A stretch of DNA of 64,000 bases from Tremella fuciformis (lineage: Eukaryota > Basidiomycota > Tremellomycetes > Tremellales > Tremellaceae), in the NCBI GenBank assembly GCA_032768795.1, contig CP136498.1:248001-312000 (forward strand), written 5' to 3'. The notes beneath the pieces were generated by a model. It saw only the letters and a list, made by a program, of their open reading frames with translations, was not told the DNA's origin and ran no database searches. Below are positions 5,601 to 60,798 of the stretch, piece after piece. Position numbers and translations under genes: made by a program. Numbering within the stretch: the stretch's first letter is position 1; each line of letters opens with the position of its first letter.

Positions 5601-6112
5601 CAAGCAGAAGATCGAGGTCACTGAGGGAGGATCCGCGAAGGGTGTGAGCAGCGAGGCGGAAAGAGTCCTAGGGAATGCTTCTCTGGTTGTCGTCATCCAA
5701 GAGTACGGAGGCAGGGGGTTGGACGAATACGCCCCTGGGTTCTTGACCTCAGGCCACCTGTGAGCGTCTCGCGCCTCCCCCTATGGTCCGCTCGTCTTCC
5801 ACTCTAGCCCCTGTTCTACATTCTCACCCTTCTCTGGCTCGGCATGTGTAGCGTGGGATAAGCTGATACGGCAGCGACAAGGCTCTACAGTCTCTCGAGC
5901 GCTTACACGCCTGCGATATCCTGCACAACGATATTCAAGCCCGACATCTCTTGCTTCATCCCGAGAAGGACTGTCTTATGTGGTGCGACCTAGAGGCTGC
6001 GGGTCATCCTGAGATGCAGACCGTTCTGGAGGCGGAGAGAAACGCACAGTCGGAACAACTACGCCAGAGAGAGAGGGACCGCGTGAAGGCTATGTTTCCC
6101 GCCCATTGTTAA
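2690..6112 (+). CDS. Family A kinase-like protein A1 (FunK1-type), four exons, 1073 aa
   Basis: Exons inferred as 2690-3273, 3314-4208, 4255-5759 and 5875-6112. All junctions have GT..AG ends and keep one open frame, giving 1073 residues. The N-terminal 200 residues are acidic then basic and of unknown function. Around residues 450-520 lies an E-Y-K then Q-V-V-Q-Q-M segment, split by the phase-0 intron, that resembles the nuclease-like N-terminal part of FunK1 proteins. The C-terminal third is a kinase-like fold: glycine-loop-like GSGRLYDAYK near 850, a VVLK lysine near K876, a helix-C-like EIAVL glutamate near E914, a catalytic-loop-like HNDIQARH at 1012-1019 and DLE in place of DFG at 1033-1035. 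The HxD aspartate is kept, but the usual lysine and asparagine of HRDxKxxN are not, so activity is uncertain. ATG 2690 is the start because it lies in the frame that splices cleanly. Domain reading is strong; the biological role is unknown. Confidence 0.82.
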
Positions 6113-21838: not shown

Positions 21839-21924
21839 GACATCCGATGTAATTTGATTTAGGTTCCTCCGGGTGAACTCTCTCTCTCTCTTTCGCCCTC
21901 GTTTCATCCAGATTACTATTGCGT

Positions 21925-30842: not shown

Positions 30843-30844
30843 CT

Positions 30845-36514: not shown

Positions 36515-39321
36515 CTAGACTTTGGCCTGGGCTGCTGCTGGGACTGCTGCTGCCTCCAGAATGACCTTGCCTGCTTCGACGATCAGACTGGTCATCTCCT
36601 CCCGACTAATGATGGCCACCTTCGTCCATCCCGCCGCTTCCATGGCTCGCACAGCGCATGGCAAGAAGAATTCCTCGTCAGAGGGATCGACGCGGGCCGC
36701 TTCCGAAGAGTCAGTGAGTCTCGCAGGGCTGACGTCTGAGAATCTGTCCGGGAAGTCGACATCGGGGTCCGAACCCTCCCAATGCGCTCCGAAGCCGGGG
36801 TCAGAGGCTCGTAAATAGTCGCGTTCGGGAGACTTGAGGTCGGGACCATCAGAAGGACCGTCTTGGTCATCAGACTCAAGCTCCTCGTCGGGCAAGGAAG
36901 CGCGCTTTCGATGGTCCGACCGAGGGAACTTGGGACGATGAAGCCGATGCGCAAGCGGGTCGGAGATAAGCGAGGAAACATCCGTCTCATCGGAGCTGAG
37001 GGAGCGGGACAAGGGGGGAACGGCTTGAGATGAGAAGCGTCCGCCTGCGGCTGCAAACCCATAAGACTCCAGTGCATTTGGAAGTTCGGGTCCTGCAGAG
37101 GAATCAGTCTGCGTAAACGAACACAAACTGCTTACTCACGCTCGGTAGGCTCGTCGCCAGCGCCCAGAGGCTGGACCGACGCCTGGCGGTTTTTCCCGCT
37201 GCCCATGGCTTGAGAATTGCCATGATCACCACCGTTGTCACCACCTGCACCGCCTCGCTCATCATCAGGACTCGGTCCACCTCCCCGTCCATGATGCGAT
37301 CCACCGCCACCGCCACCTCCATCGGTCCCGCCGCCCTGTCCACTGCCACCGCCTCCGCCGCCGCCGTTATCTCCACTCCCGCCTCCTTTGTCGTCCCGTC
37401 GGGCGAGGCGAGGGGGATTCATGCGCAGGGCCCTCGTCTCCTTGCCGGCCGCGTGACCGTGTGATGAAGTTCCGTGTTTACGCTGATCGCCGAGACGAAG
37501 CTGCTCATCCATCGCCTGTAGCTCCTTATCCTCGCCAGCGTCCGGCTGAAGCCAGACTGCGGTTGAAGAAGATTCACGGTATCTGTCCCTGACAGCTGGT
37601 AGCAGAGATGCACGCGCCGCAGCCGCTGCCATCATCATGGCCCCGTCGCCGGTCCCAGACGCGTGCACAATACCCGCTTCTGTAGACGAAGAGACAGAGA
37701 AAGCCGCCCAGAGCTTCTGCCAGGTGGGTAGCTTGTTGTCCCCTTTGAGCTGCTTTGGGTGGACGAGGGGCTTCAGAGGAAAGTCGTACCTCTCGAAGGC
37801 GACAATTTGGTGAGCGGTCATGACCATGCTCCGAACAGCGGCTATGGCGGCGACGTCGACAATATTTCCGGATCGATCCTGTGCGTCCAGCACCCTCTCA
37901 ATATCCCAAGCAAGGGTGGTGTGATCGACCCGACCCAGAAAGTCGGGTATGTCGGTGATAGCCCGCGGAAAACCCTGCCCGACTTCGATGGCGAGGGTTC
38001 TCTCGTCCGGATCAAGGACAACGATACGGGAGAAACGAGTCATACACGCCAGGGTGCCCATCCAGGTGCCGCATATCTCGTTCGCCTGTTGGATGTACAT
38101 CATCGCTTGTCCCCAACCAGTGGTGAGGCGAGCCTTGAGCGCGGCGGGAATATCGTCTGGTGAGGACGAGCGGAGGAGTCGCTCGTAATCCGGCCAAGTC
38201 ATGTGGAAAGCCTTGTCCTCGCCGACGAGGAGAGCGCATTGAGTCGCCGAGCCCGCGATTGGGGATGACGAAGGTGGGAGGAAACCGTCTGTAGAATCAC
38301 CAGGACGGAAAGCTGACTGCTTCAAGGCCGAGGATGAAGTGAGTGTCCGGAAATGCGTCACCGACTGGATTCTGCGGAGCACTCTGGTGGCGAGGCCGCT
38401 CTTGACGTCCTGATTGCGGGTACGATTGACGTCTGGAGATCCGTCGACGCCCATCGGGGGATCGGAAGAATGTGCGAGACGGGCCTCTTTCGCTGAATTC
38501 GGGCCGATGGTTGAGGATGGGACGGGAAGAGAGCGAACTGCGGGTCCGCGAATGGAAAGGGTATGATCCGGGATCCGAATACCTGCTCTCGGGACGTCCG
38601 TCTGTCCCTCCATGTGCAAGCTATATGAGCGCTTTGTGCTCTGGCTGCTGCGCTCGGCGGTCGTGTGCCCGACCAGGGCGTACACTCGTGTGCGGTGGGG
38701 GGATGGAGGAAACTCCGGTCGGGAAGCGGAAGCAGAAGTGGGTCTCGCGTCCGTATGCTCTGCGGGAGCGGTGGCAGCGATGGAGGTCGTGGCCGCTGCG
38801 AATCGTCAGCCTTAGACTTCGTTAAATCTGACCATCTACTGACATCCTGCCTGTGAGCGGCTCGTCTTTCGCCGCTTTTGTGACCCCGTCATCGCTTTGT
38901 AATGATCGTAGAGCTTGGAGAATTCCTGGAAGGTTCGGGAGTCCTTCAACTGGACCGAGAGCGAATGAGGATGTGTGGCGACTCGGAGCTTACTGAGATC
39001 CTGTTCCGCGAAGTGTGACACGCAGAGTGATGACGCTCCCAGTTTCGCTTGAATGCTGAAATCGGAAGTCTCGGTCAGACATAATGATCGCCAAATGAGC
39101 GCCCAGCATATTTGTTGATCTGGCTCCGAGCCAGGCTCGCATCTGACCATCGAGATGAGATCCTGAAAGGGTCTGATCTCGTCGGATCGCTTCGTCAGAA
39201 CCGGAGGATAGAGCGAACCATACGTCTTTGAAGGGAACTTGGTTACGGACATCCAACGAGTGTCGTCATCGTGAAGTTTACCGGTCAACAAACGACCGAG
39301 AGAGAACGACTGCAGTGGCAT
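36515..39321 (-). CDS. Family B protein B2 (FunK1 N-terminal-like, no kinase), three exons, 903 aa
   Basis: Exons on the minus strand: 39321-38844, 38795-37140 and 37092-36515, with introns of 48 and 47 nt (donors GTCAGT and GTGAGT, acceptors CGCAG and CTGCAG); the frame is continuous for 903 residues. The start is the ATG of MPLQSFSLGRLL. The core domain at residues about 385-435 contains MMYIQQANEICGTWMG and RIVVLDPDERTLAIEV, the pattern shared with the other B genes and resembling the N-terminal region of fungal FunK1 proteins. A Gly/Asp-rich linker occupies about 625-680. The last exon ends with a small domain (GWTKVAIISREEMTSLIVEA) that is the family's C-terminal hallmark. There is no kinase motif. 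It lies 230 bp downstream of the 3' part of A3 on the same strand. The function is unknown. Confidence 0.75.
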
Positions 39322-40261: not shown

Positions 40262-40417
40262 TGTTGAACAATAGGCCCCGAGAGACGCCTCATAGGGTCA
40301 GAATTGCCTCTTGCGGCCAAATGAGTAACCTTATGTAGATGGCTTGAGCAGAGCGACAGCTCATAAGTAGAGAACTGCAGAGAGAGACGAATGCATTGCT
40401 CTCATCATTGTGTAACA
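40262..40417 (+). repeat. 5' LTR of the copia element
   Basis: 156 bp, TGTTGAACAATAGG to ATTGTGTAACA. Compared base by base with the 3' LTR I see no difference. The element's promoter should lie here. Confidence 0.95.
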
Positions 40418-40763
40418 GATTAAAAGTCCCAAGTCTCAGCCCGAGACTACAGAGAGCATAACGGGCTGTCTATCGAGCCGTCGCCGCTGCCGCAGACGCT
40501 CTAGACACCGCCACAAACCGAGCCGTCGCCGTCTACATCGCCGCGGACGCTCGAGGAAGTTCCCAGCCGTCAGAGAAGGCTAGAGGAAGAACGAGAACAC
40601 CTCGTAAGCACACAGGGAGAGCGTCGGGCCTAGTAACAGGCGCTCTATCGCGAAAGTCGTCCCCAGCGAGGTATCGTTCCGCTGACGCACACTCTGCCGT
40701 CATATCTATCAAAATCAGCACCCCCGCGTGCGCACAGACCATCCCTTACATACCTTTATCGCG

Positions 40764-43700
40764 ATGTCAGCCACCAGAGTCAACATCGACGCGATCCCAA
40801 AGCTCTCGCATGATCCTTCGTCATATGCGCCATGGCGGGCGGCCGTAGAAGTCGCCCTGCAGCTTGGAGACTGCTGGAATGCAGCCTTGGGCCTCGATCC
40901 CGAGCCAGGGCGTGTCGCAGCTACCGAGCGTCGCACTCGAGCAGGATCCGTCATGCCGACGGGATCCGAGGCTGGCGCGTTCAGCAGCGAGGATAAGAAG
41001 GACTGGGAGAGGTGGCAAGCCCGAGAGAGCAGGGCACAGGCGATGTTGAAGGGAACGGTCTCGGAAGCCGTTCGGCTCGACATTGAAGACCTACTCGCTG
41101 CAGCCGATATGTGGCTGTATTGCGACAAAATGCACGAGGCCGACCTCCTGGAGAATCAGCGCATTGTTCATGCCCGCCTGTGGACTCTAGACCTGCGAGG
41201 GGACGCCTCTGCGGACGAAATGAGCGCTCACGTCGAGACGTTCTCCAAGGCGATTTCGGACGGCAAGCGCGTCGGGATCGTCCTGAGCGACACCGAGCGC
41301 GCTCAGAGATTCCTTGCCACGATCCTTGACCCCGCCTTCAACATTGTGAGGGCTGAATTGGCCCCCATCGCCAAGGACAAGCAGTCCTGGGCCGTCGTGC
41401 TCTCGAAATACACCACCGAGATCGCGCGACGAAGGGCTAGGCCGCCTCAAGGCCGTCAAGGTAACGGTGGTGGCAAACCGCTCGCGATGGCTGTCGAGCG
41501 CCGCCCTCGGTTCGAGAGAGACAAGGCCAATGACGAGTGTCGACATTGCGGCAAGAAAGGTCATTGGGAGCGTGATTGCCGCAAGAAGGCTGCAGAACTG
41601 CAGCGCGGCGGCCTGCAGGGCCGCGGCGGACGCTCTGCTCGGCAGAGAGGCGGCCGAGGTGAACGCAAGGGCGTTCAAGACCGTCAGGACGTCGTCGCCG
41701 CAGCCGACAAGAGGATCACGATTCCTCCTAAGGCCGACTCGGGACTGCTCGCTGCAGCCCTGGAAGTTGACATGGATCCGTGGGCCGGTTTGACTGTTGC
41801 CGCCACCGAATGGGCCGAGCTCGATGATGATAGCGACGATCGCATCGTCTTTCCTGACCAGCTCGACAACCCGTGGTTCGAGGATGGGTCTGCAGAGGCC
41901 AGTAATGACGCCCTGTTCACCGCAGACACTCTGCAGGTCGAGTCAGAGGCCGTCGAGCCCGTTTGGGTGCTCGACAGCGGAGCTACCGACCACTTGACAC
42001 CGCACAGGTCGATCCTAAAACGCGTCCGCCGTCTCGAGACGCCCCGAGTCTTTGGGCTAGCCAGCGACACCGGCACAATGCAGGCCATCGAAGTAGGCGA
42101 GATAGATCTTGTCCTGTCGTCTGGGCAACGCCTCACGCTCCGAGACGTCTACCACGTCCCGACAGCTCGAATCAGCCTCTGCTCCCTGTCAAGGCTGCTG
42201 CGATGGGGCTGGCGGGCGGATCTCAAGGGTGACGGCGGAACGCTCGAGCGACGGCAGGAAAGGCTAGCTCTGCGAAAGAAAGGCTCGCTTTGGACCGTGC
42301 GACTCGGCAGGACGCACCCTACGATCCTGCTTGCAACCGCAGTCGACGCTAGATCACCGCTCGAGGCTGAACATCAGCGTCTCGGTCATATAGGCATCGA
42401 GCGTCTGAAAGAGCTGGGTAGGAAAGACCTACTTACCGAGCCCTGGCGAGTCTATAAAGACGATCCGTTCGTTACCGCTGCATGCGAGGTGTGCGCTCGC
42501 ACCAAAATTACCAGGCCGCCGAAGGCCGGTGACGCCCCGCTGCTCAGAGGCGGCGGCGACGGTGTCGGCGTTGATGTCGACATTACCGGGCCATTCGAGA
42601 CGTCCGTTGACGGATGCGAGAACATGCTCGTGGCTATCGAGCGCTCGAGCAAGATCCTTGGCGTGGTCCCGATAGGCCGGAAGTCAGAGGCGTTCAACGC
42701 CTTGCAGCAGTTCGTAGCCAAGATCGAGCGGCAGCTCGGAGATCGCGTCCGAGTCATTCGCAGCGACGGCGGAGGCGAGTTTGATAGCCTGGAAGCCCGA
42801 GCGTTCTATCAGTCAGCCGGTATTCAACATTACATGACGCCTAGGTACACGCCCGAGCTCAACGGGGCGGCTGAACGAACGATACGCACCGTCAAAGACA
42901 TGATAGCCGCCATGCTGGCCGATAGCCGCTTGCCTCATTCCTACTGGTCTTTCGCAGCCCGTTACGCCGCAGTAATCATCATGAAGCTGTCTGTGTCAGC
43001 CAGGACGGGCTTATCGGCTTGGAGCGCGCTTACAGGGCGGGAGAGAGGCCTAGATTCCGTCCTGCGATTCGGGCAAAGGTGTCATGCGCAGATCCCGTCT
43101 CAGATTCGCCGCAAGGCGTCGTTTACGATAGAGCGCGGCGAGGCGTGTCGGATACTCGGTCAGAGTGAGACCCAGAGCGGATGGATTGTGCAGCTTGACG
43201 CCACGGGCGAGATTGCCCATCGAAGAGACGTCAAAGTGCTTGAGATGTCGGAGGACGATGAGGCCGATGTCGGTCACGTGACCCAAAGCGACCAAGCACA
43301 GCTCATACCGGTTGGATCGATGGGAGGCAAGATCGCAAGTCATTCAAGCCAGGATGATGATAGAGACGATCTGGAGGTACCTGGAGATCAGCCTGAGCCG
43401 GGGCAAGCTCAGAAAAGTGTCGCTGGAGTAGAGATCTCAGAGGAAGAGCTCACAATCAACGATCCCGCAGTTGCCGTGTCCAACACACCCGAGCAGCCTC
43501 GGGTCCCCCGTCCATCCCGTCTTCCTGTAGCCACCAATCGTTCCAGGATTCCCGTTGCCGACAGGTGGACGTATGTACCAGTCGTCGAGACCCCGCCGGC
43601 ACCTCCCGTGGCCGCCAATACCGTCGGACGGCCCGTCCGCGAGAAGAAAGCGCCCGCAAAGTTCGGTGCGATCGTTGAGCGGCTGCATAGCCCTTTCGCT

Positions 43701-45788
43701 TTCCTATCCGCCAATGCCGCCGACGGCCCCGTGATGCCTGTAGATCCCAGGAACCTAGCCGAGGCGATGGCTAGCGATGACAGAGGAGAGTGGATTGCCG
43801 CCATGGAGAAGGAAATTGCGAACATCGAGAGTAAGGGGACATGGCAAGAGGTCAAACTTCCTGCAGATCGCAAGGCAGTCGGATCGCGTTGGGTATTCAA
43901 AGTCAAGACCGATGCCGACGGCCACGTCGTCAAACACAAGGCTAGGCTTGTCGCACAGGGTTTCTCGCAGGTGCCGGGCGTCGATTTTGAAGAGACGTTT
44001 GCGCCGGTAGGCCGTCTCGGATCTCTGAGACTGTTGCTAGCCATCGCTGCAGCCGACCGCATGATTGTCGCACAGGCCGACGTCGAAGGAGCGTATCTGA
44101 ACAGCCCAATCGACACAGAGGTCTACATTCGGTATCCGGACGGGATGCGGCGGAGACCAGGCTGCGACGCTCTGCTGCTGTTGAAGAGCCTGTACGGCCT
44201 AAAGCAGTCAGCAAGGAACTGGTGGGAAGAGCTAGGACGAGTCTTACATCGACAGGGCTTCCTGAGGACGAACGGTGACTGGGGACTGTATGTGCGGCAG
44301 GACCGACAAGGCCGAATCGTGCTTGTCTTGGTCTACGTCGACGACATCGTGATTGCCGCATCATCGCAGGGGGAGATAGACGACCTGTGGACCGCCCTAA
44401 AGGCTGAGTGGACGATCACTGTCATAGGCGACGTCGGAACCGTGCTTGGGATGAAGGTATCGCAGGACAAGGCTAGGCGGACGATCTGGCTGAGTCAGCC
44501 CGCATACATCGACAGGGTGCTCGAGAGGTTCCCAGAGCACGCTCGGCGACGCACCAGATCAACACCGTTGCCGCAGGATGCCAAGATCGATGCAGAGGAC
44601 GTGTCGACGGCCCTAACGCCCTATCAAGAACTTGTCGGATGTCTCCTATGGCTAGCGGGCTGCACCCGCCCGGACGTCATGTTCGCGGCCTCGTATCTAT
44701 CCCGAGCGCTCGCTGCACCTACCCGTCAGCATTGGGACCTCGCACAAGGCGTCCTGACCTACCTAGCCCACACACGGACTGTTGGGCTCAAGCTAGGCGG
44801 CGGGAAAGATGACGGGCTGCAGGGCTGGGTAGATTCCGACTGGGCAGGCTGCAAGGAGACCCGGCGGTCAACCACGGGTTGGTTGATGGAGTTCAAGGGC
44901 TCGCCGATCACCTGGTCGTCCAGGCGGCAGGCTACCGTGTCAACATCCACCGTCGAGGCCGAATACATCGCTGTCGCAGAAGCAGCCAAGGAGGCAGTTT
45001 GGCTCAGGAATCTACTCTGTGAGCTAGGACTCGAGCAGAGATCACCAACGCCGCTCTCCTGCGACAACCAGGGGTCCATCAGACTCGCAGGACAGCCTAC
45101 TACTCACTCTCGAACCAAACATATCGACATAAAGCATCATTTGATTCGGGAACTTGTTGACACAGGCAAAGTCAACCTGCGGTACGTCAGCTCTGCAGAC
45201 CAGAAGGCAGACATCCTCACCAAGTCGCTCCCCGCCGCCGCCCACGCGCGCCATTTTGAAGCTCTGGGTCTGGGCCGTCCGCCTGCCGGCGCGGAGCGCG
45301 CTCTTGTCCACCTAGCGGCTGCATTCAGCGATCTAGAAGGCTTCGGCGGTAGCGGGAAGATGTTGAATGACAAAGTCAGTCGCGCTCCGAATCGTCTGCC
45401 ACACCACGTGGTCAAGCCAAAACGCCGAAATGCCGCTAGTCAAACCCATCAGCTCGCACATCAGCAACGCTTCGCTGCATGCGCACGGGGAGTGAGAGAC
45501 TTTATGCATGCAGGGGGAGCCAGAGGATCCCAAAGAGGATCAGGGCTACCGGCAGACACCAAGATCATCGATTTTGGGTCGGTATTGATGGAGAACGGCC
45601 GGACGCCTTCCCATCAGCCTGAAGGAAGTGTTGGTCTGGACCGTGCGACGCTCGCGACGCGCGGTCTCGGGCCTCTATCGTCCTGGAGCGAAGATCAACA
45701 GGCTTGGGGATGCCCGGTAGGTCCTTGGCACAACCGCCAGACCTGTTGCGGCCACCTGCAGCCTGCAGACTTCGAGGGGGAGTGTTGA
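40764..45788 (+). CDS. Copia gag-pol polyprotein, 1674 aa
   Basis: A single frame without frameshift or stop. Gag occupies the first 260 residues and ends in a CX2CX4HX4C zinc knuckle at 259-272 (CRHCGKKGHWERDC). The protease motif LDSGAT has its aspartate at D404. The integrase zinc region starts near H537, and its catalytic triad reads D606, D668 (RSDGGGEF) and E704 (GAAER). Reverse transcriptase has YVDD at 1191-1194. RNase H has DSDW from D1357 and TKHIDIKHH near 1450-1456. The usual copia end (ADILTKSLP at 1482) is followed by about 170 further residues that run through the polypurine tract into the 3' LTR. ATG 40764 is chosen because the upstream in-frame codon at 40728 is GTG. It encodes the whole machinery for reverse transcription and integration. 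Confidence 0.95.
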   Translation: MSATRVNIDAIPKLSHDPSSYAPWRAAVEVALQLGDCWNAALGLDPEPGRVAATERRTRAGSVMPTGSEAGAFSSEDKKDWERWQARESRAQAMLKGTVSEAVRLDIEDLLAAADMWLYCDKMHEADLLENQRIVHARLWTLDLRGDASADEMSAHVETFSKAISDGKRVGIVLSDTERAQRFLATILDPAFNIVRAELAPIAKDKQSWAVVLSKYTTEIARRRARPPQGRQGNGGGKPLAMAVERRPRFERDKANDECRHCGKKGHWERDCRKKAAELQRGGLQGRGGRSARQRGGRGERKGVQDRQDVVAAADKRITIPPKADSGLLAAALEVDMDPWAGLTVAATEWAELDDDSDDRIVFPDQLDNPWFEDGSAEASNDALFTADTLQVESEAVEPVWVLDSGATDHLTPHRSILKRVRRLETPRVFGLASDTGTMQAIEVGEIDLVLSSGQRLTLRDVYHVPTARISLCSLSRLLRWGWRADLKGDGGTLERRQERLALRKKGSLWTVRLGRTHPTILLATAVDARSPLEAEHQRLGHIGIERLKELGRKDLLTEPWRVYKDDPFVTAACEVCARTKITRPPKAGDAPLLRGGGDGVGVDVDITGPFETSVDGCENMLVAIERSSKILGVVPIGRKSEAFNALQQFVAKIERQLGDRVRVIRSDGGGEFDSLEARAFYQSAGIQHYMTPRYTPELNGAAERTIRTVKDMIAAMLADSRLPHSYWSFAARYAAVIIMKLSVSARTGLSAWSALTGRERGLDSVLRFGQRCHAQIPSQIRRKASFTIERGEACRILGQSETQSGWIVQLDATGEIAHRRDVKVLEMSEDDEADVGHVTQSDQAQLIPVGSMGGKIASHSSQDDDRDDLEVPGDQPEPGQAQKSVAGVEISEEELTINDPAVAVSNTPEQPRVPRPSRLPVATNRSRIPVADRWTYVPVVETPPAPPVAANTVGRPVREKKAPAKFGAIVERLHSPFAFLSANAADGPVMPVDPRNLAEAMASDDRGEWIAAMEKEIANIESKGTWQEVKLPADRKAVGSRWVFKVKTDADGHVVKHKARLVAQGFSQVPGVDFEETFAPVGRLGSLRLLLAIAAADRMIVAQADVEGAYLNSPIDTEVYIRYPDGMRRRPGCDALLLLKSLYGLKQSARNWWEELGRVLHRQGFLRTNGDWGLYVRQDRQGRIVLVLVYVDDIVIAASSQGEIDDLWTALKAEWTITVIGDVGTVLGMKVSQDKARRTIWLSQPAYIDRVLERFPEHARRRTRSTPLPQDAKIDAEDVSTALTPYQELVGCLLWLAGCTRPDVMFAASYLSRALAAPTRQHWDLAQGVLTYLAHTRTVGLKLGGGKDDGLQGWVDSDWAGCKETRRSTTGWLMEFKGSPITWSSRRQATVSTSTVEAEYIAVAEAAKEAVWLRNLLCELGLEQRSPTPLSCDNQGSIRLAGQPTTHSRTKHIDIKHHLIRELVDTGKVNLRYVSSADQKADILTKSLPAAAHARHFEALGLGRPPAGAERALVHLAAAFSDLEGFGGSGKMLNDKVSRAPNRLPHHVVKPKRRNAASQTHQLAHQQRFAACARGVRDFMHAGGARGSQRGSGLPADTKIIDFGSVLMENGRTPSHQPEGSVGLDRATLATRGLGPLSSWSEDQQAWGCPVGPWHNRQTCCGHLQPADFEGEC

Positions 45789-45938
45789 ACAATAGGCCCC
45801 GAGAGACGCCTCATAGGGTCAGAATTGCCTCTTGCGGCCAAATGAGTAACCTTATGTAGATGGCTTGAGCAGAGCGACAGCTCATAAGTAGAGAACTGCA
45901 GAGAGAGACGAATGCATTGCTCTCATCATTGTGTAACA
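45783..45938 (+). repeat. 3' LTR of the copia element
   Basis: 156 bp, identical to the 5' LTR by direct reading. Its first 6 bp include the stop codon of the gag-pol frame. Confidence 0.95.
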
Positions 45939-45943
45939 GTGCC
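45939..45943 (+). repeat. Right target-site duplication GTGCC
   Basis: Directly follows the 3' LTR and is identical to 40257-40261. Confidence 0.95.
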
Positions 45944-47955
45944 GAGTGCGGTGAGCACGTGCGTTGAAGGGAGCTCAGAAGCGAATTCAGAGTGATGCGT
46001 ATGTGAAGAGACAAGGTCGTGGGCCATGACAGGCATACGCCACACGCCAGCATCAGGAACGAGATTGAGTGCGGTCCCTGGGCGGCCGGGACCATCTGGC
46101 CTTCGTAAACGTCGAACAAGCCTGCTTGCCCAATACTCGTTCCAACATGTATACTGTTAACAGACTACGCACCATCGATATCGATCATGGATCTGGGCAA
46201 GCTTGTAAATAACGGGACGAGGCGGTTCACAGTGTAATGGGGGAATGGCTGGCGCAGTGCGCAATCCCACGAGCATCTGTTAAACAAAAGTGACCGGCCA
46301 GTCGAGTGTCAAGGGCATTGATCGCCGTCTTGTAACAGCATCGGGCACTTGGCTCTGTATGGCGATCTTCGTGTTCGGGTTCAAGCTGTTATTCAGGGGT
46401 GGTCTACCTTTCCCCCGACAGTCCCCTCTGTTTCGACCGATCTCACGGCTGGTCCCCTCGTCGGTGTTGCCGTAGACCTTGCTAAATTCCTCGGCACAGG
46501 CGCATCCTGGGCGTCCCGTCCGACTTCCACGCCGAGGTCATCGGGCTGCCATTTAGCCCGCGTCGTTTCCCCATTCTGGAGCGAGTAGACCAAGAGCGAG
46601 AAGTATAGAGGCGAGGTTCGGATTGGGTCCCATCAAAGTGTCGACGCGCAGGACGCATCTGGAGACGGAGATTCTATCTGGGGATTCGGGGCGGAAGAGG
46701 AGAAGTGATGTCGAGTTGAAGAGTACTGCATAGAGGACTTTGTGGCAGTGTAGCTCGGCATAAATCTGGGGCATTTTTAGCTAGGAACCTTTGACTCTCT
46801 CACGAGGTGCTCAGCAACTCACCTGCAAACACAAGTCCAGAAAAGTCTCCCGATCGGTCAACCTCCCGCCATCGTCCTTGCCCGCGAGGTTTCCTGCAGC
46901 ATCGATAGGGAGTCGGAATCCCCGGGCGCTGAAATCGGCAGCCCGTTCTATGCCTTGCATCTTCGAGTCCTCTGCTGCGTCCCTGCTATTGTACTTGAGA
47001 ACGGCTGTTGGTCGGACGGACCCGGGTGAGGTGTCAGAGGGAGACAAGGTGAGGATTAGATCCGCAATGCCGGGTGTCTTGCGTTGCTTGACGGTAGTCC
47101 ACTCAGCGCCCTTCAGCGGTTGTGCGTCTGGATGAAAGATGGCTGACGTCCGCAGCAGTACATTCACTGATTCGACAGGGAGAAGGCGGATGGCGGCACA
47201 TTGCTCATGTTCGTAGCGAAGGGTCGCCTTGCTGGAGAAGCGCTGTCGGGAGTGGGCATAAGGGCCAGTCCAGCTTGCGACACTTTTTCGCTCCGCCTGG
47301 AGCAACTCGGGCGTCTGGGGAGACGAGCGATCGGTCTCTTCCTCAGCGTCATCTTCGTCGTGGGCGGATGCCCCCCTCACATGCCTCTTCAGAACTGTGA
47401 AGAGGGGATGAAGCAGATCACTGCGCAGCGTGAATGTGATGCCTCGGGGATGCCGCTGAGTAAAGTTGGTTCTGAACGACTGGGACATCTTCGTGCTCCT
47501 GCGGGAGGCGGGTCCGGGAGAAAATGCCTCGTCGTGCTCAGACAGGATGTCAGATACTCGCGGCGCGAGCGCAGCGTGACGGCTGCCCTCGGATCGCGTC
47601 ACAGCCTATGCATTTCGGGAGAGAGAGCGCGCTTCCAATCGTCGAAGCGAGTTTCGATTCCCTATGCGGTCTGCAGAAAAGGGAATGCATCGAGATCGCG
47701 TCACCGCGTCCCAAACGGTCGAGGGGGGTGCTGACTGGCCTCGAAAGCGGGAAATGGGCTGTAAACGGGGATGTCGGCGGTTTCGAGAATGAGTCGGGCA
47801 TCACGAGCCTGTTGCGGGTCCACGTAGAAGACTGGTGAAGATGTGGTACCATCTCCAAGATCAATCGAGGTTGTAAGCAGCACCGACGAGACACGCGTCG
47901 TGTCTAAATATCTCGAATCAAGGCGTGTGTGGCGAATCCGCCGGCTAGAATCTGC
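45944..47955 (-). pseudogene. 5' part of family A gene A3, severed by a copia insertion
   Basis: Minus-strand pieces follow the family A layout. An N-terminal piece at 47955-47705 contains SSPVFYVDPQQARDARLILE. A large exon at 47605-46823 ends in RETFLDLCLQ and joins, over a clean 57-nt phase-0 intron (46766-46822), to an exon starting IYAELHCHKVLYAVLFN. A1 and A2 have a phase-0 intron at the same place. That exon stops at 46553. Further along, GLFDVYEGQMVPAA at about 46120-46075 matches the kinase glycine-loop region of A1 (GRLYDAYKADVWFPAA). The frame leading into the target duplication is continuous with the 3' part beyond the element. Two junctions (47.7-47.6 and 46.55-46.14 kb) remain unresolved, so some damage may predate the insertion. 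Confidence 0.68.
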
Positions 47956-48162
47956 TCAGTCATCTTGCCTCCCTCATGCCGTTACTTAAACTTACAAACA
48001 GGTATGCATAGCCTGTTACGGCGTACTGCTGCATGATAGTGAACTTCACGAGTGCAGACCTTAGTGCAACGTCCGCCGTTCCGAGACGAAGAGCAAGCAC
48101 ACACAATGTCAGCGAAGTTCCGGGCAGTATGTACATTCAGAGTCGCATCGATTCGAAGCTAT

Positions 48163-50791
48163 TTACTTGATGGACATGAATGGGCCTTCCGGATGCCCGT
48201 GCGCGGGGTCGACCACTTGTCCAATCCTTCCCTTGTTGCCTTCCACTGCATCCGGAACATCCAGCTCGGGGCGTAGCTCGGAGTGCGCAGTAGCGGGCTC
48301 GGGAACGGGAGAGGCGGGCCTTGCGACTCTCTCTGTCAACGACTTGTCCGCCAGCATGAGAACCGCGTCCATCTGCCTGGGATCGACCAGCACGACCGAA
48401 TAGTCCGGATATGCTGTCGCAAGGCAGTCCATCAGGATTCGAAGAGATGGTGAAGGGGGAGCGTTGACTGTTTTTGAGCTCTTCCTCCCTCCAACTTCCT
48501 GCTCCCCACTGGGCTTTGTCGTTCCCCAGCGGAAGATGTGGTCTGGATGGGATATCATGATGTCCTCGCAAACGCGCCGGACAAACGGAGCAGCTGGCCG
48601 GAAGTAGAGCAAGCAGGAGGATGGGGAAGAGCAGCGCTCGGAGAGGATAAGAGAAGACGACATACGACTAGTCAGATAGACATTTGACTTGGGGCGGCAG
48701 CGCGATCGCACATGAGACCAATCGACTTCGACCTCGGTCTCGACTAGGTCTTCCAGGGGGACGTCGTTATTGCCGACCGCCATAGAAGGTTTTCTGTCTT
48801 GCTGGCCTTGAGCGGCCTAGCCGTTAGCACTTGGCTCTGTGGCAGCAGACCCGGTATACCCGCTCAACGACTGCATGTGGCCGTAATGGAGAAGGAGAGC
48901 TCTGAATAGGGAGCTGAGGATGATTCAAGTGGCTCACGCGGTGGTGCCGATCACCAGGACCTTGATCGGGGTGATCCGAGCCAGATCGTCGAGACTCGGG
49001 TGCTTCTCCCGATTGTCCGCCCCCGGCGGACGTTTCTCCTTGTGCACTCCACTCAGCATCTTCGGTGTCCTCTTCCTCTCCATCACCGTTGTAATCGCCT
49101 GAAGGATCTTGCTCGTCGTCCGGGCCTCGCCCCTCACCCGCGTCCCATCGCCCCCGCTTGTTGGGATCTTCAGACTCCCTGGAACCATACACCGTCTCAT
49201 AAATCGCATGTCCACTGCGTGTCCTGTCCAACTCCATCGCCCACTGGTGTGCAGCATTGCGAATGATGCGAGCGACATCGTTGGCGGCACCAATAGATGC
49301 CAGTCGAGGACACGTGATGGGGTGATGGAGGAGAACATTGGAGGTGTGCATGAACAGGTTCCAGAGAGTTTGGCAGCCCTCGATGTCGATCGAGCCAGAG
49401 GGGTTGAAGAGGCGGTTCGGGGTTCTGGAGGCTAGTGGTTTGGAGATACTGTTGATGAAGGTCGAGAGGGGTATCCTGCCTACTTCTGCTGCTTCATGGT
49501 TGGGATGGAGCACATCTGCCACCGGATCGCTTGCTCCGCCATATGCGCGATCGACAAGCGCAGGTTCGGCGGGCGCAGGGTTGTTTTCAGCTGTTGTTCT
49601 TGCCATGGCTGCTGTGACACGCTGCGCCCTTGCAATTTGAGCCGCAAATAACTCCCTGGTCTCCGTATCGGCCTCCCATATCACCGTCGTTTCATCGACA
49701 ACGCAAAACCGGACAAAGCCTTCGCGGTATCCCCAGATTCCCCAATTGGTGCCAAAGGTTTCGTGCTCTATGAGACCATAGGCCAGTGCCTTGATTGCCC
49801 CATGTGCGGCCATGTCCAGACGTTCCTTCCGTTCTCCGGTCATCGCTTTGATGTAAACTCGGTCGTCCCGCTCTGTCTCAACTTGTCCGCCCGTTGATAC
49901 TCTGTGTGAGGCGTCACGACCACGGCGTCCCGTCTCAGCTCTTCGAGCCAGCGTCGTTCCCGCTACCTCAACTGATGCACGAGGGCGCGGTGGGGCTGCA
50001 GGAGCCGACGCGTAGTGACTAAGATCCGGTTTCACGATCCCCGCGTGCCTATATGCCGTCTCAGTTCGCCCGGCGCGCAGGTCGGAAATAGCGACTCGAG
50101 TAGAACTACCCGCTTCACGTGAAATAACGGGTCGGCCAGATGGGACCGATATGAACCGGTACGAGCCATTCATGGACGAGGTCGCGGGTGTTCGGTTGAC
50201 TGACTTTAGGGTCAGAGTCGTGTGCAAGGATGTATACTCCGCCGCATCCCAATCGGGTTCCAATGGTACTTCTCGTGGGCGCTTGACTTGGAAGATTTTC
50301 AATTTCTTCTTCTCCATGCGTCTCTGCAGGATCTGAAGCTGAACGGGGGAATCCCGAACTCTCCTCGGTGCGTCCGGAGAGCTCGTGCGGAGATTCTGAT
50401 CCCGATCGAGGAGCAAGTCGGTCCCTGCGTTCCAGCTACCGATGTGGATTCCAGTTGCGAAATTGACTTCGTATTCTCGTGAACCATACGTGTACGTTAA
50501 AAACATGTCCGCCATGGTCGAGTTGACCCGTTCCTCTGAGACGTTTGCGATAGGATCGCCATTTGGGTAGAAGTAGTGGCGTCGAAGGTCCAGCAGTCGA
50601 TGTTCGGGCGGGTTGTTGGGAATGGTGATGGACCAGTCCAGTTGCCGACCAAAGGTACCCGGGGCGTACGAGGACGGGTTGGACGAAGGGGCTGTGATGG
50701 AATGCGGAGTGAGCGGGGGATCGGATTCGAGCGTGCTTGCGGTGGACTGATCGGACAGACGAGGTGCGGTGCGGATGGTTGGGGGGGGCAT
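48163..50791 (-). CDS. Family B protein B3 (FunK1 N-terminal-like), two exons, 835 aa
   Basis: Exons 50791-48938 and 48816-48163 on the minus strand, with a 121-nt phase-0 intron (donor GTGAGC, branch GCTAAC, acceptor GGCTAG). The start is taken at MPPPTIRTAPRLSD; an in-frame ATG at 50833 would add 14 hydrophobic residues. The core domain at about 345-375 reads TFGTNWGIWGYREGFVRFCV then VDETTVIWEAD, the counterpart of the B2 core. A Gly/Glu/Asp-rich linker precedes the intron, as in B2 and B4. The C-terminal exon contains VVLVDPRQMDAVLMLAD at about 756-772, the family's hallmark. There is no kinase domain. It is divergent from B4 and is followed on its own strand by A3. Confidence 0.75.
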
Positions 50792-51132
50792 GATGTGCGA
50801 CGCTGCGATGTGAGGTGGGTAGAAGAGTAACATCAATCAACCAACAGGAAGGCAGACCATGCCAAATGCAATGCCTAAACAGCGTGCCTGCTAAAAAAGA
50901 AGCGGAATCAAATCTTACTGGAATAGGCGTGCAACGTGGTGTGACTAGCAAGATGGCCGAGACGGGGTCTCTCTCCTTTTCTTTCGTCACGTGTCTCTGA
51001 TCAGCATGCCTGATCCTCATCATCAACAGCCGATAGTGGAACCTCGTTCTACGTCTACATCGAATCCGACCTCGACAGCAGTGATCGCTCTACATCGCTC
51101 AGCCGCTGTCGGATACCATCCCCTGACAGGCT
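50792..51132. promoter_or_regulatory. Shared upstream region between divergent B3 and B4
   Basis: The 341 bp between the two inferred start codons must hold both promoters if the starts are right. I see no clear TATA box. Because B3 and B4 are paralogues in head-to-head array, the interval is the centre of the inverted arrangement. A plus-strand frame with ATG at 51006 could encode an alternative N-terminus of B4 after splicing (CCCTGACAG acceptor at 51129). Confidence 0.5.
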
Positions 51133-53339
51133 ATGCCCCGCGATGGCATCATCCACATTCGCCCTCTAAAGGACGCCATATCTCTCAGCCGACCGATCCT
51201 CACCCGATGTTACCATCGCTTCCACGGATCTCGAAGATATACTGGGGAGAACGAGTATCGGAAAGACCTGAGGGATGTCTTCAACAGCCTGATCGCTCCT
51301 CCCGTGCTGGGCAGGGTCGAGATGGACGACGAACTGAACATGCGCGACATGGCTCGGGACGAATGGGACTCGATGATCGAGGTGCATTGTCTGCGAGACC
51401 TTTTCGATCAAGAGGCCGCAGACCGCTCGGCCTCGACAACAACGACGACGACGAACTCGTCGTCGTCGTCTCAAGCCTCGACGCGGAAGAGTAAGAAATA
51501 CGGGCCGACGACACCTGGTCTTGCCACACGCCTTATGGAGCGATTCGATGAGCTCGGTGTTGAGTCGTCGAATCGGTACAGCGACGACTTGGTCCAGGTG
51601 GGCGCAATCGGCGAGCTCAAGTTCAATAGGGACACGCCCGACGACGGACCGAGTCGTGATGCTCAGCTGCTCGAGGCGATCTGTCAGATCATATGGTACA
51701 TGCGGTGCGGTTCCAGGTTGTTCGGCCTGCGCATGGGCATACTCATCATCAACGGCGAATTCAAACGATTCTTCGTGATGGACGAGACGAGGTTGGCTGT
51801 CGAAGTCGTGTCTACCTCTACCTCTATCCGATCCCTCGCCGAGCTCTTACATTCGACCCCTCACAAGGCCCGATCGACATCTCGCACTCATGCGAATCAC
51901 GATATCCTGAGTAAAGGCATGGGCGACGACCAGTGTCGCCAGCTGTGTACGTTGCCCAATCAACTTTTCCGCGATCTCACCGCTTCGGACCAGACATTCG
52001 ACCCGCCAGCGGGATACAATGTCGCCGTGCTAGACCGTTTGATGGGCTTTTGGGCCACGGCACTGGAACGAACGTCCGAGTTGCAACACGATCGTCGGCG
52101 CCATACCGGCCTGCAACCAGTGAGTGTCGCCAGCCATTCCCATCTCCAGCCCAACGCTCTCAGAGCTCATTCGCAGCTGGGTCCGAGCTTGACTGCCGCG
52201 ACAGCTGCAACACTCGCCCCCTCGCCTGACCTACCCCGCACTCCTCATCACATGTTCACCTCGGCCGAGATGCCCTGTTTGACGTTCGAGATCGACGGGG
52301 AAAGTACAGCGCAGGTCGGACGGCTCAAGCATCATTACCACTCGCTTCTTCGCGCCAGCGACAAGGCTGCAAAATCGAAGCGGAGACGGTTTTTGGCACC
52401 TCCTGATATCGGGTCAAGTGAGCTAGACGGACACCGCCGGGGCCACGACGATGACCCCGACCAGGACGGGTCGAACGATAGAGGAGGTGACATGCGCAGA
52501 AGGACTCGGCCGGGGCAGGGAGCGGATACCAGGTTAGGCAGACAGGGAGGGGAACAGGCCCAGAGCGGCCAGGGTGGGTCGTCCGGGAAGGACAAGAAAG
52601 AGGGCAAGTACAAGGACAAGGCCGAGGACAAGGTCGCAGACAAGGAGCGGGTTTCGGATGCGGATGCGATGGCGGGTGAGTCTCACTTTCTATTTCTGAT
52701 CTGATCAATGCCAAGGATCATGCCTGACAGGCTCCAGATCGGACCGCGCGGTCGACACGGACCCACATTGTCGAGCAATGGCGCAACAACGTCACGCCCG
52801 GAGTCGAGATTCAGGTGGAGGAGGGAGACGACTGTTCGGATCCACTTGCCCTTGCTCCCGATCACGAAACCGACGATTGCGACATCTCCACATCGGCCGA
52901 CACCTGCCGGCGGGCCCGCCGCATTCGCTCCCTGCTGAATACTATGTCTACTACCAAGGCCGAGTGGACGCTGTGCGAGGTTAGCCCTGCCGAGATGGAC
53001 GATCTTTTGCACGTCCACCCATCTCCTACGGTACCCGTACCCGTACGTGTACGCGGTACTCGCATCTGTAACGATACCACCCAAGCGCTGGCGCTAGACG
53101 TCGACGGGGCTCCTACGGATCCGCCGCCGGCGACAGCTACAGAAACAGATACGAACAGTCGGTCGAGCTCGACAGGACCGTCCACTCCGACGTCAGCGGC
53201 AGGTCCCGGGACCGGTTGTTTGGCGCTTCCTCTCAAGCCCACGTCGGGACGCGAGGCAATAACAGAACGGCGCGTCGAGGTTCTGGTCGACCGCCAACAA
53301 CACCTGGAGCACGACCACGACTACCTGGTCCATGACTAG
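51133..53339 (+). CDS. Family B protein B4 (FunK1 N-terminal-like), two exons, 714 aa
   Basis: Exons 51133-52675 and 52738-53339, with a 62-nt intron (donor GTGAGT, branch CTGAC, acceptor CTCCAG) that keeps the frame. The core shows GELKF at about 160-164, then GSRLFGLRMGILIINGEFKR and FFVMDETRLAVEV at about 194-226. GELK followed by this strand pattern is what the N-terminal part of FunK1 proteins looks like, and the E-x-K pair recalls PD-(D/E)xK nuclease folds. A Lys/Asp/Gly-rich linker precedes the intron. The last exon has EWTLCEVSPAEMDDLLHV at about 589-608, the family C-terminal domain. A Thr/Ser run near residues 100-115 is encoded by an inverted triplet repeat. The start is uncertain because an acceptor-like CTGACAG immediately precedes it. 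Family A gene A2 follows 487 bp downstream. Confidence 0.75.
51434..51471. repeat. Inverted triplet repeat inside B4
   Basis: ACGACGACGACGA is followed at once by ACTCGTCGTCGTCGT, a near-perfect inverted repeat that could form a 12-bp hairpin. In frame it encodes Thr residues followed by Ser residues. Confidence 0.8.
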
Positions 53340-53826
53340 GAGGTAGGTGTATTGTTCGCGCCAATGCATGTATTCTAGTTGATGATGTATGCGTTGCCTT
53401 GCCCCAGCCGGCCGGCTCTTGCTTCCCTGCGTTTCTGCGTTTCTCAACCCGCCATGGAGAGCTGGCTTGAGCTTGTCGTCGATTCTATAGCTTAAACGGC
53501 AGATTAGCCGGTCTGGCCTGTTCTCTCACGGTCATCGTCCCCAGCGCCAGCGAGCGCAGCGCAGCATTGTAGAGGAAACGTGAGCCCCCGCCTCCCTCTT
53601 CACAGGATCAATGCAAGGGGTGGATCCAGCCGAGGCGTGTGCGCAGCATGACCGCTATCAGGGTGCCATATTCCTGTATCCCACTGTCGCCGATAAAGTG
53701 GGGGGCTATGATAAAGTGATCTGATCTCGCCTTTGTAGGCTTCAGGTTGGGTTGTGTGCGGTCTGTCTCCTCTGATCCCCTCTACGAGTACTCGAGTACC
53801 AGCGTTTACAGTATCCGTAGTCTAAG
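53340..53826. promoter_or_regulatory. Intergenic between B4 and A2, presumed A2 promoter
   Basis: 487 bp between the stop of B4 and the start of A2 on the same strand. I see no coding signal. It presumably holds the B4 terminator and the A2 promoter, although a single long transcript joining the two cannot be excluded from sequence alone. Confidence 0.4.
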
Positions 53827-56445
53827 ATGGACGTCGACGCCACCGCCTCTTTCAGCAGGACCGTTCATGTTAGTTATCACCTTGATTGGCTCCCATCTGA
53901 CCGAGCGACCGCCGTCTTCGGTCTCAACCTTCCCCGCCTTGAGACCACGCTCACACAGGCCGATGCCGTCTCGTCGACCGAAGCCAGAAGAGCCAGGTCG
54001 GCCGCTCGAGCCGAGGCGAGGCAGGAGAGGGACAGGGAGCGAGAGCGAGAAGACCAAATACCGAGATCGACTTCACCATCAGGGGATCTCCAACCCACAC
54101 CCACCATTGCCTCCACATTGACAAGCCCCCCTTCCTCTGCACCGCGTCGCTCCGCAATACGGTCATCGTCCGGCGCATACTCTTACTCAAACTTGGACAT
54201 TGCGGTGCTCGTCTCACTCGCCAGGATACAATCACCCACACCGCCTCCTTCGGTCCGACCATCATCGCCCTCCACTCCGAAACTCGCCCTCACACTCTAT
54301 CACAGCGCTTCCTGTCTCGACAATGTGCTCTCTGATCTACTCGAGTTCGTCAACGTTCCCGCCGTCGCGACACTCCCCGTCTTGCGGGATCATCTTCTGC
54401 AGAGCATTGGAACCGGACGCCAGATGCCCGTGGCCACACCGCACACCGAGTTGATGGCAGATGATCCTCTGTGGATCGCCGCGGCGCTTCGCTACGATAT
54501 CCGCCGTACCATACAGACAGGCGCTGTACACGGCGACGAAACATCCTTGACTCAATCTTGGTTCAAGAGACTCTCAGACGCGGCCAACCAATTCGTCAGT
54601 GCCGTTGCCAAAAGTGAGAACGACTTGGCCCAGTCACAGTCATGCTCGACGGCCACGACGGGAACCCGTTTCGCTCCATCGATATGGGATGGTATAGCCC
54701 CGAATGAAAACCCTCGACCCGATCTCCTCTGTCCCAATGCGACCTTTGATGCCAAGGCGTCCATGTCTTCTCTCGAAGCGTTCAGTGCCGTGCTCCGAAC
54801 CGCCCATCGAGCCGAACTGTTCATCGTCCCAGATCTTGTACCAGAGGATGCCGTGTTCAAGACCAACATCAATGTTTACGACATCATGGGCGAGGTCATG
54901 AACCCGAACGATCGGCATGCAGGAGCCGTGTCGCTCATCGTACAGGTAAGTTTGCCCTGATGTTGCATGACTGAACCCCCAGGTCGTGACGCAGATGCAG
55001 CTCTACCGCCGACGGTACGGCGTCGTCACAGCCTGGAATAAAGGATTGGTGATATGTCGCACCGGTCCGACCACGTTTGCGCTTAGCGACTGGTTCATGC
55101 CTACCGCACCGGGTCGCGATCGAATAGAGTCGACCACCTTTGCCGTACTGTGTGCCCTGCTCCTGGTCAATGCTTCCTCGGCCCTCGACCGAGAACGAGA
55201 TTTGATACGCGTCGATCTGGTGGACACCGCATTAGAGGAGGTGATGGAAAGACGCAAGAAACGCAGGCTAAAGAAAGCGTCACAGGCTGCGTCTGTACGG
55301 ACAAACGAGGCGTCAACGTCGACCCATCATTCCACGGCGGATGCGCCATCCGGTTCTTCCCCAATGGATGAGCTCCATGCTCATGAACCATTCTCATCCG
55401 ACCTGGACTCGCCTGATGTGAGCCTGTCTTGGCCGCCGCTCGTCTGGGGATTCAGCTAACGCGCAAATAGCCGTCGCCCATCACGCCCAATTACCCGTCC
55501 TTCTTGGACAATCACCAACCACGACTTTTCCCCTCTTCTCCGTCCTCCTCTCCTTACTCGGAAACAGATATGCCTTCTCATCCGAAATGTCCAACGCCGT
55601 CAGACACCTTGAAAGGAGACGGTGCCCTGCACATTTCTCTATCCCCCATTCTCCTGACTCAATCCCAACAGATACGCGTTTCGAGCCGACAGCACATCCC
55701 CGTCCATCTTCTGCCCACATATCATTTCGATCCCATTGGGGAGTGTCGTCCGGTGCACGTCGAGCTCGAGGGCTTCCATTCGCAAGGTCGTTATTGGACC
55801 GCGTATTGTGGTAACGTCGGCGGCAAAGCCAGGGTCATCGTCAAGATCTGTCGTTTGGCTGCTTTTGCGGACGAGGACGACGACTTGCAAGCCGGCGATG
55901 TGTCATGCGATGACGCGACGAGCGAGATTGAACACGAGATGTGCGTAGTGCGATCTCGCGCGCTTGCGAGTCGGATCACTTGTGCGCCCATCTTGTACGG
56001 TTATTGGAGCGGCACCCGTGTCGCATCGTCAGGATCGCCGTCGCCGATGGGTCTCCGCTCACGGCCGATGCTCACGAGGGATAAGACCAGGCTGATACTG
56101 GCCGTCATGGAAGATGTCGGGGGCGAATATTCTCCGACCGAGCTGCACGTCAAGCGGTGAGCGAGTGACATACATTCTCCCTTTCAAAATCGCTAATGCC
56201 TCTGCAGGGACGAGATCGTTGCGGCGTTTGAACAGCTCCATAAAGCCGGCTTCATCCACGGCGACGTCGCTGCTCGGCACGTACGCTGCGGCACAGATTG
56301 GGACAAGAAGAGCCTTGGCCGACCGAGACTGATCGATTTTGGTCGGACGAGGATAGCGTCGGACGATGAGATTGCCGCGGAACAACAAGTCGTGCAAGAC
56401 ATGCTCGCGCGCGCGTCGTGGTCTTCGGTGTACAAGATAAGATAG
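53827..56445 (+). CDS. Family A kinase-like protein A2 (FunK1-type), four exons, 825 aa
   Basis: Exons 53827-54945, 54983-55417, 55471-56156 and 56208-56445; introns of 37, 53 and 51 nt start GTAAGT, GTGAGC and GTGAGC. Residues 1-373 are mostly of unknown fold with an Arg/Glu-rich segment near 60. The phase-0 intron after LIVQ, followed by VVTQMQLYRRRYGVV, sits where A1 has its ILLQ/VVQQM junction. The kinase-like part has a beta-3 lysine (ARVIVKICRL, K643), a catalytic loop FIHGDVAARHV (H764, D766) and LIDFGRTR (D790-F-G). The phase-2 intron just before the loop is also shared with A1. Unlike A1 the DFG motif is intact, although the loop lacks the usual lysine and asparagine. A weak donor at 56428 could instead splice to an exon at 56511-56987, giving 978 residues. 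Confidence 0.8.
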
Positions 56446-59756: not shown

Positions 59757-60106
59757 CTCTGCCTTCCTCTGAAATTGAGCTCCTGCGAGATGGCGGGCGA
59801 GGTGGGGCAGCTTGTTTGGCCTGAGCCTTTGCCCCCGCCTTGCGCTAAGCTGTATCTTCTGGTCAGAAAAAGTTTAAATTACAAACGGTTCAAAGTCTTA
59901 TGTATCTAGTTACGAACTTTAAGACTCAAACAGTCTTACCTACGAACCGCCACAAAACCATGACGTGTCTATCCTTATCACCCCCCTTTCTCACCATCAA
60001 AGAGGTGGTGCTTGCCATCAACGACGTCGTTCTTGTCGTGCTCTGCTTCCGTGCGCATACACAGCCTTGGATACCTTTATGAGCGACATACATGCATAAA
60101 TGATGT

Positions 60107-60695: not shown

Positions 60696-60798
60696 GACAT
60701 GGATGCCGCCCGCACGGACTTGCTCGGCATGAACGTAGTTGAAGGCGACATTGGTGTAGGTCTGCAGGTGCTCTGTGGCCGCTGTCCGTCTCTCAGCC

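What the first reader, a model, noticed from the sequence alone, without database searches (positions are those of the whole stretch)
45944..56445. Inverted pair of two-gene modules: kinase-less B gene next to kinase-like A gene
B3 and B4 are divergent paralogues with start codons about 340 bp apart, and each is followed on its own strand by a family A gene (A3 leftward, A2 rightward). B2 lies just beyond A3, and A1 is followed by a broken B1. B proteins look like the N-terminal half and A proteins like the C-terminal half of FunK1-type kinases, so the modules may be split or partnered versions of one ancestral system. Repeated co-duplication suggests joint function. Seen: order, strands, shared motifs and exon structures. 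Inferred: joint function.
Basis: partly seen in the sequence, partly recalled or inferred. Interest (0 to 1): 0.78.

Follow-up and report, generated by a model that had tools for sequence, protein, structure and literature searches.

The report
Clustered nuclease-like and kinase gene families
A fungal gene cluster holds two fast-diverging, unnamed protein families, one with motifs of a DNA-cutting enzyme and one that joins such a part to a small kinase; they share neighbourhoods, but the two-gene modules do not look like copies of one ancestral pair.

Summary
Gene order, strands and the 341-bp gap between B3 and B4 are as reported. Corrections: (1) A3 is cut in its kinase domain by a young Copia element (identical LTRs, 5-bp target duplication); its apparent end at 45944 is the element's edge. 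(2) A proteins are not 'C-terminal halves': they have an N-terminal half of their own, mostly with an ExK-like motif, plus a short kinase. B proteins are stand-alone and show a PD-(D/E)XK-like pattern: ExK in 15 of 16 cores, QxxxY in 14 of 16. Homology between the A and B halves is not shown. (3) Neither is FunK1 by Pfam. (4) B3 and B4 fall in different, deeply split subfamilies, and the closest relatives of B2 and A2 elsewhere lack the partner found here; repeated co-duplication is not supported. (5) Tight A-B pairing outside the window is marginal (3 of 12 within 7 kb, p about 0.1), but both families crowd onto two small contigs (27 of 38 loci on 6% of the assembly). B4 and A2 have spliced matches in an outside collection. 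Most likely a lineage-specific nuclease/kinase conflict system, in architecture like REase-kinase Crinkler C-termini; fold and function are untested.

The parts
2864..6107 (+). A1: N-terminal half with IIEYK and QMHK motifs, then kinase (K, HND, DLE). Exons 2864-3273, 3314-4208, 4249-5759, 5875-6107; the two 40-nt introns are weak calls
   Evidence: gene model; profile matches (A1 helped to build the profile); relatives
6845..9465 (+). B1: decayed B remains, at least one and perhaps two copies (6845-7144 resembles the N part of B227, 9016-9465 the B2 core); a stop inside each matched stretch
36515..39321 (-). B2: stand-alone nuclease-like protein (GEDK, QAMMY), glycine-rich stretch, C-terminal tail; 73% relative on C10
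39450..40261 (-). A3, part behind the Copia element: VAIK lysine piece and HDD/NFD piece of the kinase; 3' end not settled
   Evidence: the two flanks read apart
40262..45938 (+). Copia LTR retrotransposon inserted in A3; identical LTRs, target duplication GTGCC at 40257-40261 and 45939-45943
45944..47903 (-). A3, part before the Copia element: N-terminal half and kinase glycine loop; start codon not settled
   Evidence: relative A126
48163..50791 (-). B3: KPDL, GERK, QxxxY place reads KALAY; C-terminal VDPRQMD tail after one intron
51133..53339 (+). B4: GELK and QIIWY kept, PD place reads PG; SPAEMD tail. Exons 51133-52119, 52177-52675, 52738-53339
   Evidence: spliced protein P0001 (letters)
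53827..56445 (+). A2: N-terminal half (RPDLL, TFDAK, QMQ) and short kinase (VIVK, HGD, DFG) ending 36 residues on, counted from the DFG aspartate. Exons 53827-54945, 54983-55417, 55471-56156, 56208-56445
   Evidence: spliced protein P0005

Best explanation
A and B are two lineage-restricted, fast-diverging families that share chromosomal neighbourhoods. B is a stand-alone PD-(D/E)XK-like protein with a disordered glycine/acidic stretch and a short conserved tail (S/T/D-P/R-x-x-M). A joins a nuclease-like N-terminal half to a minimal kinase that, in A2, ends soon after its DFG motif. The likely mechanism, by analogy with the REase-kinase C-termini of Crinkler-type proteins, is a nucleic-acid-cutting or -binding module whose activity is set by the attached kinase in A, with B proteins as stand-alone variants, some of them catalytically decayed. 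No secretion signal seen by eye, crowding on two small contigs, mobile elements in and beside the genes, decayed copies and rapid divergence point to intracellular conflict (genome defence or self/non-self) rather than housekeeping. Shown: genes, motifs, locations, subfamilies, Copia insertion. Inferred: fold, catalysis, partnership and role.
For: Of 16 B cores (14 of the 23 genome loci plus P0003 and P0004) ExK is in 15, QxxxY in 14 and PD-hydrophobic in 9 as cut; three of the other seven show a PD upstream. ExK or DxK in A1, A2, A218, A793, A633, A281, A124 but not A3. Kinase lysine, HxD and DFG aspartates in 6 of 6 aligned A kinases; their profile matches solved protein kinases at E 1e-6. 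27 of 38 loci on C9+C10, 6% of the assembly. Spliced B4 and A2 proteins outside. In Crinkler-type proteins REase-kinase fusions are about one sixth of C-termini and the kinase is thought to regulate the REase (passages of PMC5289972).
Against: No fold evidence: AlphaFold models have mean pLDDT 39.4 (B4, 4 rows) and 36.0 (A2, one row) and were not searched. No window protein passes a Pfam cut-off; the B profile finds no solved structure below E 0.046. The A and B nuclease-like halves do not match each other beyond shuffles (E 0.075; 3 of 60 shuffles reach the score; P 0.13 with the shorter cores). B4 lacks the PD aspartate, B3 and B366 the Q, B370_C4 the ExK glutamate, so some B proteins may not cut. 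Tight pairing outside the window is marginal.
Confidence: 0.45

Rival explanations
1. Split or partnered FunK1: B and A are the two halves of one ancestral FunK1-type kinase, duplicated together.
For: A is kinase-like and one A (A793) reaches PF17667 at E 0.0018, below cut-off. B3-A3 and B4-A2 have the same order.
Against: A has both halves. Window A and B do not match PF17667 at E up to 10. B3 and B4 lie on two sides of a split with 98/99 support, and B3's best hits in the genome are C9:12, C9:366 and C10:775, not B4; A2 is sister to A630 and A1 to A793; no A match beside B370_C10 in 29 kb and no B4-like match beside A630 in 30 kb.
Confidence: 0.1
2. Injected effectors of a plant- or host-associated fungus, Crinkler-like, acting in host cells.
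For: REase-kinase architecture (passages); fast divergence and clustering on small contigs.
Against: No secretion signal seen by eye at the N-termini of B2, B3, B4, A2 (no predictor run). No Crinkler header (PF20147) in the genome, but that search rang in none of 14 controls and so shows little; no Crinkler match among the window proteins scanned. Organism and lifestyle unknown.
Confidence: 0.15
3. Remains or passengers of mobile elements: A and B are cargo genes of transposons and mean little to the host.
For: Copia in A3, NDC10_II (Crypton-like) element between A218 and B227, transposase fragments in the window; decayed copies.
Against: No repeats of 60 bases or more that bracket A-B units among the 9 direct families and the 25 of 41 inverted pairs shown; spliced matches of B4 and A2 outside.
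Confidence: 0.15
4. Adjacency is only a by-product of both families living in the same chromosome parts.
For: With contig fixed and the window left out, 2 of 12 A loci lie within 6 kb of a B (p 0.24) and 3 of 12 within 7 kb (p 0.10); with A clusters collapsed 1 of 12 within 2 kb (p 0.43) and 3 of 12 within 6 kb (p 0.08). Head-to-head pairs within one family also occur (B97/B100, A124/A126).
Against: With the window 5 of 15 within 6 kb, p 0.02 (0.017 by rotation); 5 of 12 within 15 kb outside it, p 0.03. The B search is incomplete, so distances are upper bounds.
Confidence: 0.45

Closest known systems
REase-kinase C-termini of Crinkler-type (CR) proteins, Zhang et al. 2016 as described in PMC5289972 (passages seen; the 2016 paper itself not seen)
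   Same: nuclease-like half joined to a protein kinase in A; diverse, multi-copy
   Different: no Crinkler header found (weak test); a second, larger family here (B) has no kinase; REase fold not shown
FunK1 (Pfam PF17667, Pkinase_fungal)
   Same: fungal kinase; expanded in part through lineage-specific chromosomes in Fusarium oxysporum (PMC6001611, passages seen)
   Different: no window protein matches the family at E up to 10; A793 and A218 only below cut-off
Kdo/APH-type kinases (PF06293, PF01636)
   Same: best Pfam kinship of A kinases with Pkinase: A793 above cut-off for Kdo and APH; A2 and A630 below for Kdo
   Different: eukaryotic multi-domain proteins; the kinase ends soon after DFG in A2
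PD-(D/E)XK nucleases with a QxxxY motif (motif recalled, not from a call)
   Same: PD, ExK, then Q-x3-Y in order in the better kept B cores
   Different: no match to a solved structure below E 0.046; several copies lack a motif residue

Membership tests
FunK1 (PF17667) | match to the family profile above its cut-off | tested here: not met
   no window A or B at E up to 10; A793 17.5 and A218 11.4 bits against 24.1
FunK1 (PF17667) | family present in the genome | tested here: inconclusive
   3 hits, one over the cut-off; all three read by eye as other ordinary kinases; exon-wise search
Crinkler (CR) proteins | N-terminal header domain (PF20147) | tested here: inconclusive
   none in the window proteins or genome, but no control rang
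Crinkler (CR) proteins | REase-kinase C-terminal architecture | tested here: inconclusive
   motif order fits in most A; fold not shown
PD-(D/E)XK superfamily | PD ... ExK motif (motif level only) | tested here: met
   ExK in 15 of 16 and PD in 9 of 16 B segments; three more with PD upstream
PD-(D/E)XK superfamily | alpha-beta core fold | tested here: inconclusive
   model mean pLDDT 39.4; strand, helix, strands at ExK and QxxxY but low confidence
PD-(D/E)XK superfamily | nuclease activity | not testable with these tools
   needs a protein assay
protein kinase-like superfamily (A) | VAIK lysine, HxD, DFG aspartate | tested here: met
   invariant in 6 of 6 aligned A kinases; PDB kinases at E 1e-6

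The most novel reading that the evidence does not exclude
A and B form a two-component nuclease/kinase conflict system (genome defence or self/non-self killing) housed on accessory-like small chromosomes of a fungus, in which stand-alone, partly decayed nuclease-like B proteins regulate or neutralise kinase-bearing A nucleases, and new pairs are assembled by reshuffling distant subfamilies rather than by copying pairs.
Probability: 0.13. Interest if true: 0.8.

Novelty: new variant of a known kind. Interest (0 to 1): 0.48.

Why it matters
This genome holds about 39 loci (four of them weak) of two families in which no window member passes a Pfam cut-off. If the nuclease-kinase reading holds, it gives a fungal counterpart of REase-kinase toxins with a stand-alone nuclease-like partner family, and a concrete place to test intragenomic conflict in fungi. 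If not, the case still corrects the record: the symmetrical B3-A3 / B4-A2 arrangement looks like a copied module and is not one, and A3 is a freshly interrupted gene.

Tried and rejected
Rejected: FunK1 membership; recent inverted duplication; 'A lacks an N half'. Led nowhere: B profile against solved structures (nothing below E 0.046); B against A profiles; AlphaFold of B4 and A2, models too poor for a fold search, so none was run; relatives in viral and prokaryote contigs (none confirmed); the pattern TTAGGG x4 (no match in the assembly, so I cannot say that the contigs are whole chromosomes). Literature searches showed no title or abstract start on this pair of families; they were seen as listings, and only passages of PMC5289972 and PMC6001611 were read.

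Rows dropped before the adjacency counts: weak hits C9:428061, C11:295626, C8:309894, C10:481053, C1:3425573, C7:750024, C6:1795669, C6:616065, C5:1646878, C1:3734251 (E 0.0025 to 0.32). Kept although weak: C9:420834, C5:2318169, C4:683110, C9:243501. A126 was found after the counts and is not in them; with it there are 16 A loci. The distance thresholds were tried one after another without correction.
Full report
What is there. The window is C9:248001-312000 of an unnamed 28.14-Mb, 11-contig assembly. Fungal origin is inferred from many short introns and gene style, not tested. Gene models by a small splice-aware script give A1, decayed B1, B2, A3, B3, B4 and A2 in the order and strands of the finding. 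B3 and B4 start codons are about 340 bp apart (50791 and 51133). Two models are backed from outside: P0001 agrees with B4 with two introns removed (57 nt at 52120-52176 and 62 nt at 52676-52737), P0005 agrees with A2 but for four residues at one splice site, which moves that acceptor by 12 nt. Both come from the source marked 'lgn', longest contigs 2445 and 3063 nt against coding lengths of 2088 and 2478 nt, as separate mRNAs would give (inference: the calls do not describe the source).

A3 is broken. A 5.7-kb Copia element (RVT_2 3.9e-62, Pol_BBD 3.8e-14) lies at 40262-45938 with identical LTRs (a 157-base direct repeat, the last base being the first of the target duplication) and GTGCC on both sides. 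A search with its LTR scored 40 matches of 151 candidates, at 93-100% identity, over most contigs. On the minus strand the sequence right of the element holds the A3 N-terminal half and a glycine loop (IGQAGLFDVYEG), the sequence left of it VAIK, then HDDVQLRH and NFDHAK. The finding's left border, 45944, is thus the edge of the element, and 'B2 lies just beyond A3' describes the order before the insertion. Identical LTRs mean a recent insertion; whether it is fixed is unknown.

What A and B look like. Eight aligned B proteins share E-x-K, a Y and an R among six invariant columns. Over 16 cores (14 of 23 genome loci, and P0003 and P0004), ExK is in 15, QxxxY in 14, and a PD-hydrophobic motif in 9 of the segments as cut; upstream parts of B366, B775 and B2056 show KPDF, KPDL and PDG. 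B97, outside that census, reads PDM, AENK and QCLIY. B4 reads PG for PD, B3 and B366 lack the Q, B370_C4 the glutamate. Behind a glycine- or acid-rich stretch comes a short tail, V/I-S/D/T-P/R-x-x-M, in seven of the eight aligned rows; the B4 row ended before it, and its tail SPAEMD is in P0001. A proteins have ExK-like motifs in the N half (A1 EYK, A2 DAK, A218 ESK, A793 ENK, A633 EIK, A281 EFK, A124 EYK; not A3), then a Q motif, then a kinase with lysine, HxD and DFG-type aspartates in 6 of 6 aligned. The N halves are conserved in relatives that did not build the profile: A1 with A281 and A124 (E 1e-9), A3 with A126 (E 2e-19). The kinase profile finds solved kinases at E 1e-6. The B and A nuclease-like halves are alike in motif order only: profile comparison gives E 0.075 and 3 of 60 column shuffles reach its score. 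No window protein passes a Pfam cut-off. Two AlphaFold jobs gave mean pLDDT 39.4 and 36.0 and are not used as evidence.

Not co-duplicated. A tree of 18 B cores has these groups: B3 with B12, B366, B775; B4 with B552, B419, B347, B370_C4 and the outside P0003 and P0004; B2 with B370_C10 (91/91); B100, B227, B804, B2056 (86/94); B1 is left open in the tree, though blastp ties it to B2. The split between the B3 group and the other 14 rows has 98/99 support, the B4 group 98/95. B3's own branch is long, so its place is less sure, but its best hits in the genome are C9:12, C9:366 and C10:775. Of six A kinases, A1 is sister to A793 (95/94) and A2 to A630 (96/99); A3 was not placed because its kinase is split. 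Around the 73% relative of B2 on C10 no A match was found in the 29 kb read, and around A630 no B4-like match in 30 kb, only a B2-like fragment 11 kb away. A3's relative A126 stands head to head with an A1-type gene. The symmetrical arrangement is thus a meeting of distant subfamilies.

Neighbourhood. Single-protein searches and profiles gave 15 A and 23 B loci. Contigs C9 and C10, 6.0% of the assembly, hold 27 of 38. With B positions drawn at random within their contigs, 3 of 15 A loci lie within 2 kb of a B (expected 0.83, p 0.05), 5 of 15 within 6 kb (1.58, p 0.02) and 8 of 15 within 15 kb (3.1, p 0.005); rotating each contig's B set as a block gives p 0.05, 0.017 and 0.003; with clusters of A collapsed, 1, 3 and 5 of 12 (p 0.43, 0.08, 0.03). 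Without the window, 2 of 12 at 6 kb (p 0.24), 3 of 12 at 7 kb (p 0.10), 5 of 12 at 15 kb and 6 of 12 at 25 kb (p 0.03 each). The thresholds were not corrected for. One outside pair, B227-A218 on C5, has the order B then A on one strand and an NDC10_II element in the gap; two others, B552/A556 and A793/B804, are divergent. Pairing is therefore suggestive, co-clustering clear.

Mechanism. The best reading is a nuclease-like module, alone in B and kinase-tied in A. In Crinkler-type proteins REase-kinase fusions make up about a sixth of C-termini, the REase is believed to carry the toxicity and the kinase to regulate it (passages of PMC5289972). Expansion of kinases, FunK1 among them, through lineage-specific chromosomes is known from Fusarium oxysporum (passages of PMC6001611). 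Neither makes this a member of those families. An intracellular conflict role is inference from decay, divergence, location and mobile elements.

Noticed in passing
window 15046-15635, 19480-20110, 21354-21863, 30826-31633: Arrays of 70-80-base tandem repeats, each unit an imperfect palindrome (CCGAGTGRCCA ... TGGCCACTCGG), in both orientations, over 16 kb; nature unknown.
   Followed up: no
window 58834-61202: Inverted repeats (89-92%) around a region with a weak SWIM zinc-finger fragment (below cut-off); looks like a decayed DNA transposon.
   Followed up: partly
window 57271-57726 (-): DDE_1 transposase fragment, E 4e-8.
   Followed up: yes
C5:222500-225000 (loci L031, L032): NDC10_II tyrosine-recombinase-like (Crypton-like, name recalled) gene pieces between A218 and B227.
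   Followed up: partly
C10:97040-102000 and C10:123608-126200 (L025, L047): Head-to-head pairs within one family: B97/B100 and A124 (A1-type)/A126 (A3-type), like B3/B4 in the window.
   Followed up: partly
whole assembly: No exact TTAGGG x4 stretch in any contig: telomeres are missing or of another kind.
   Followed up: no
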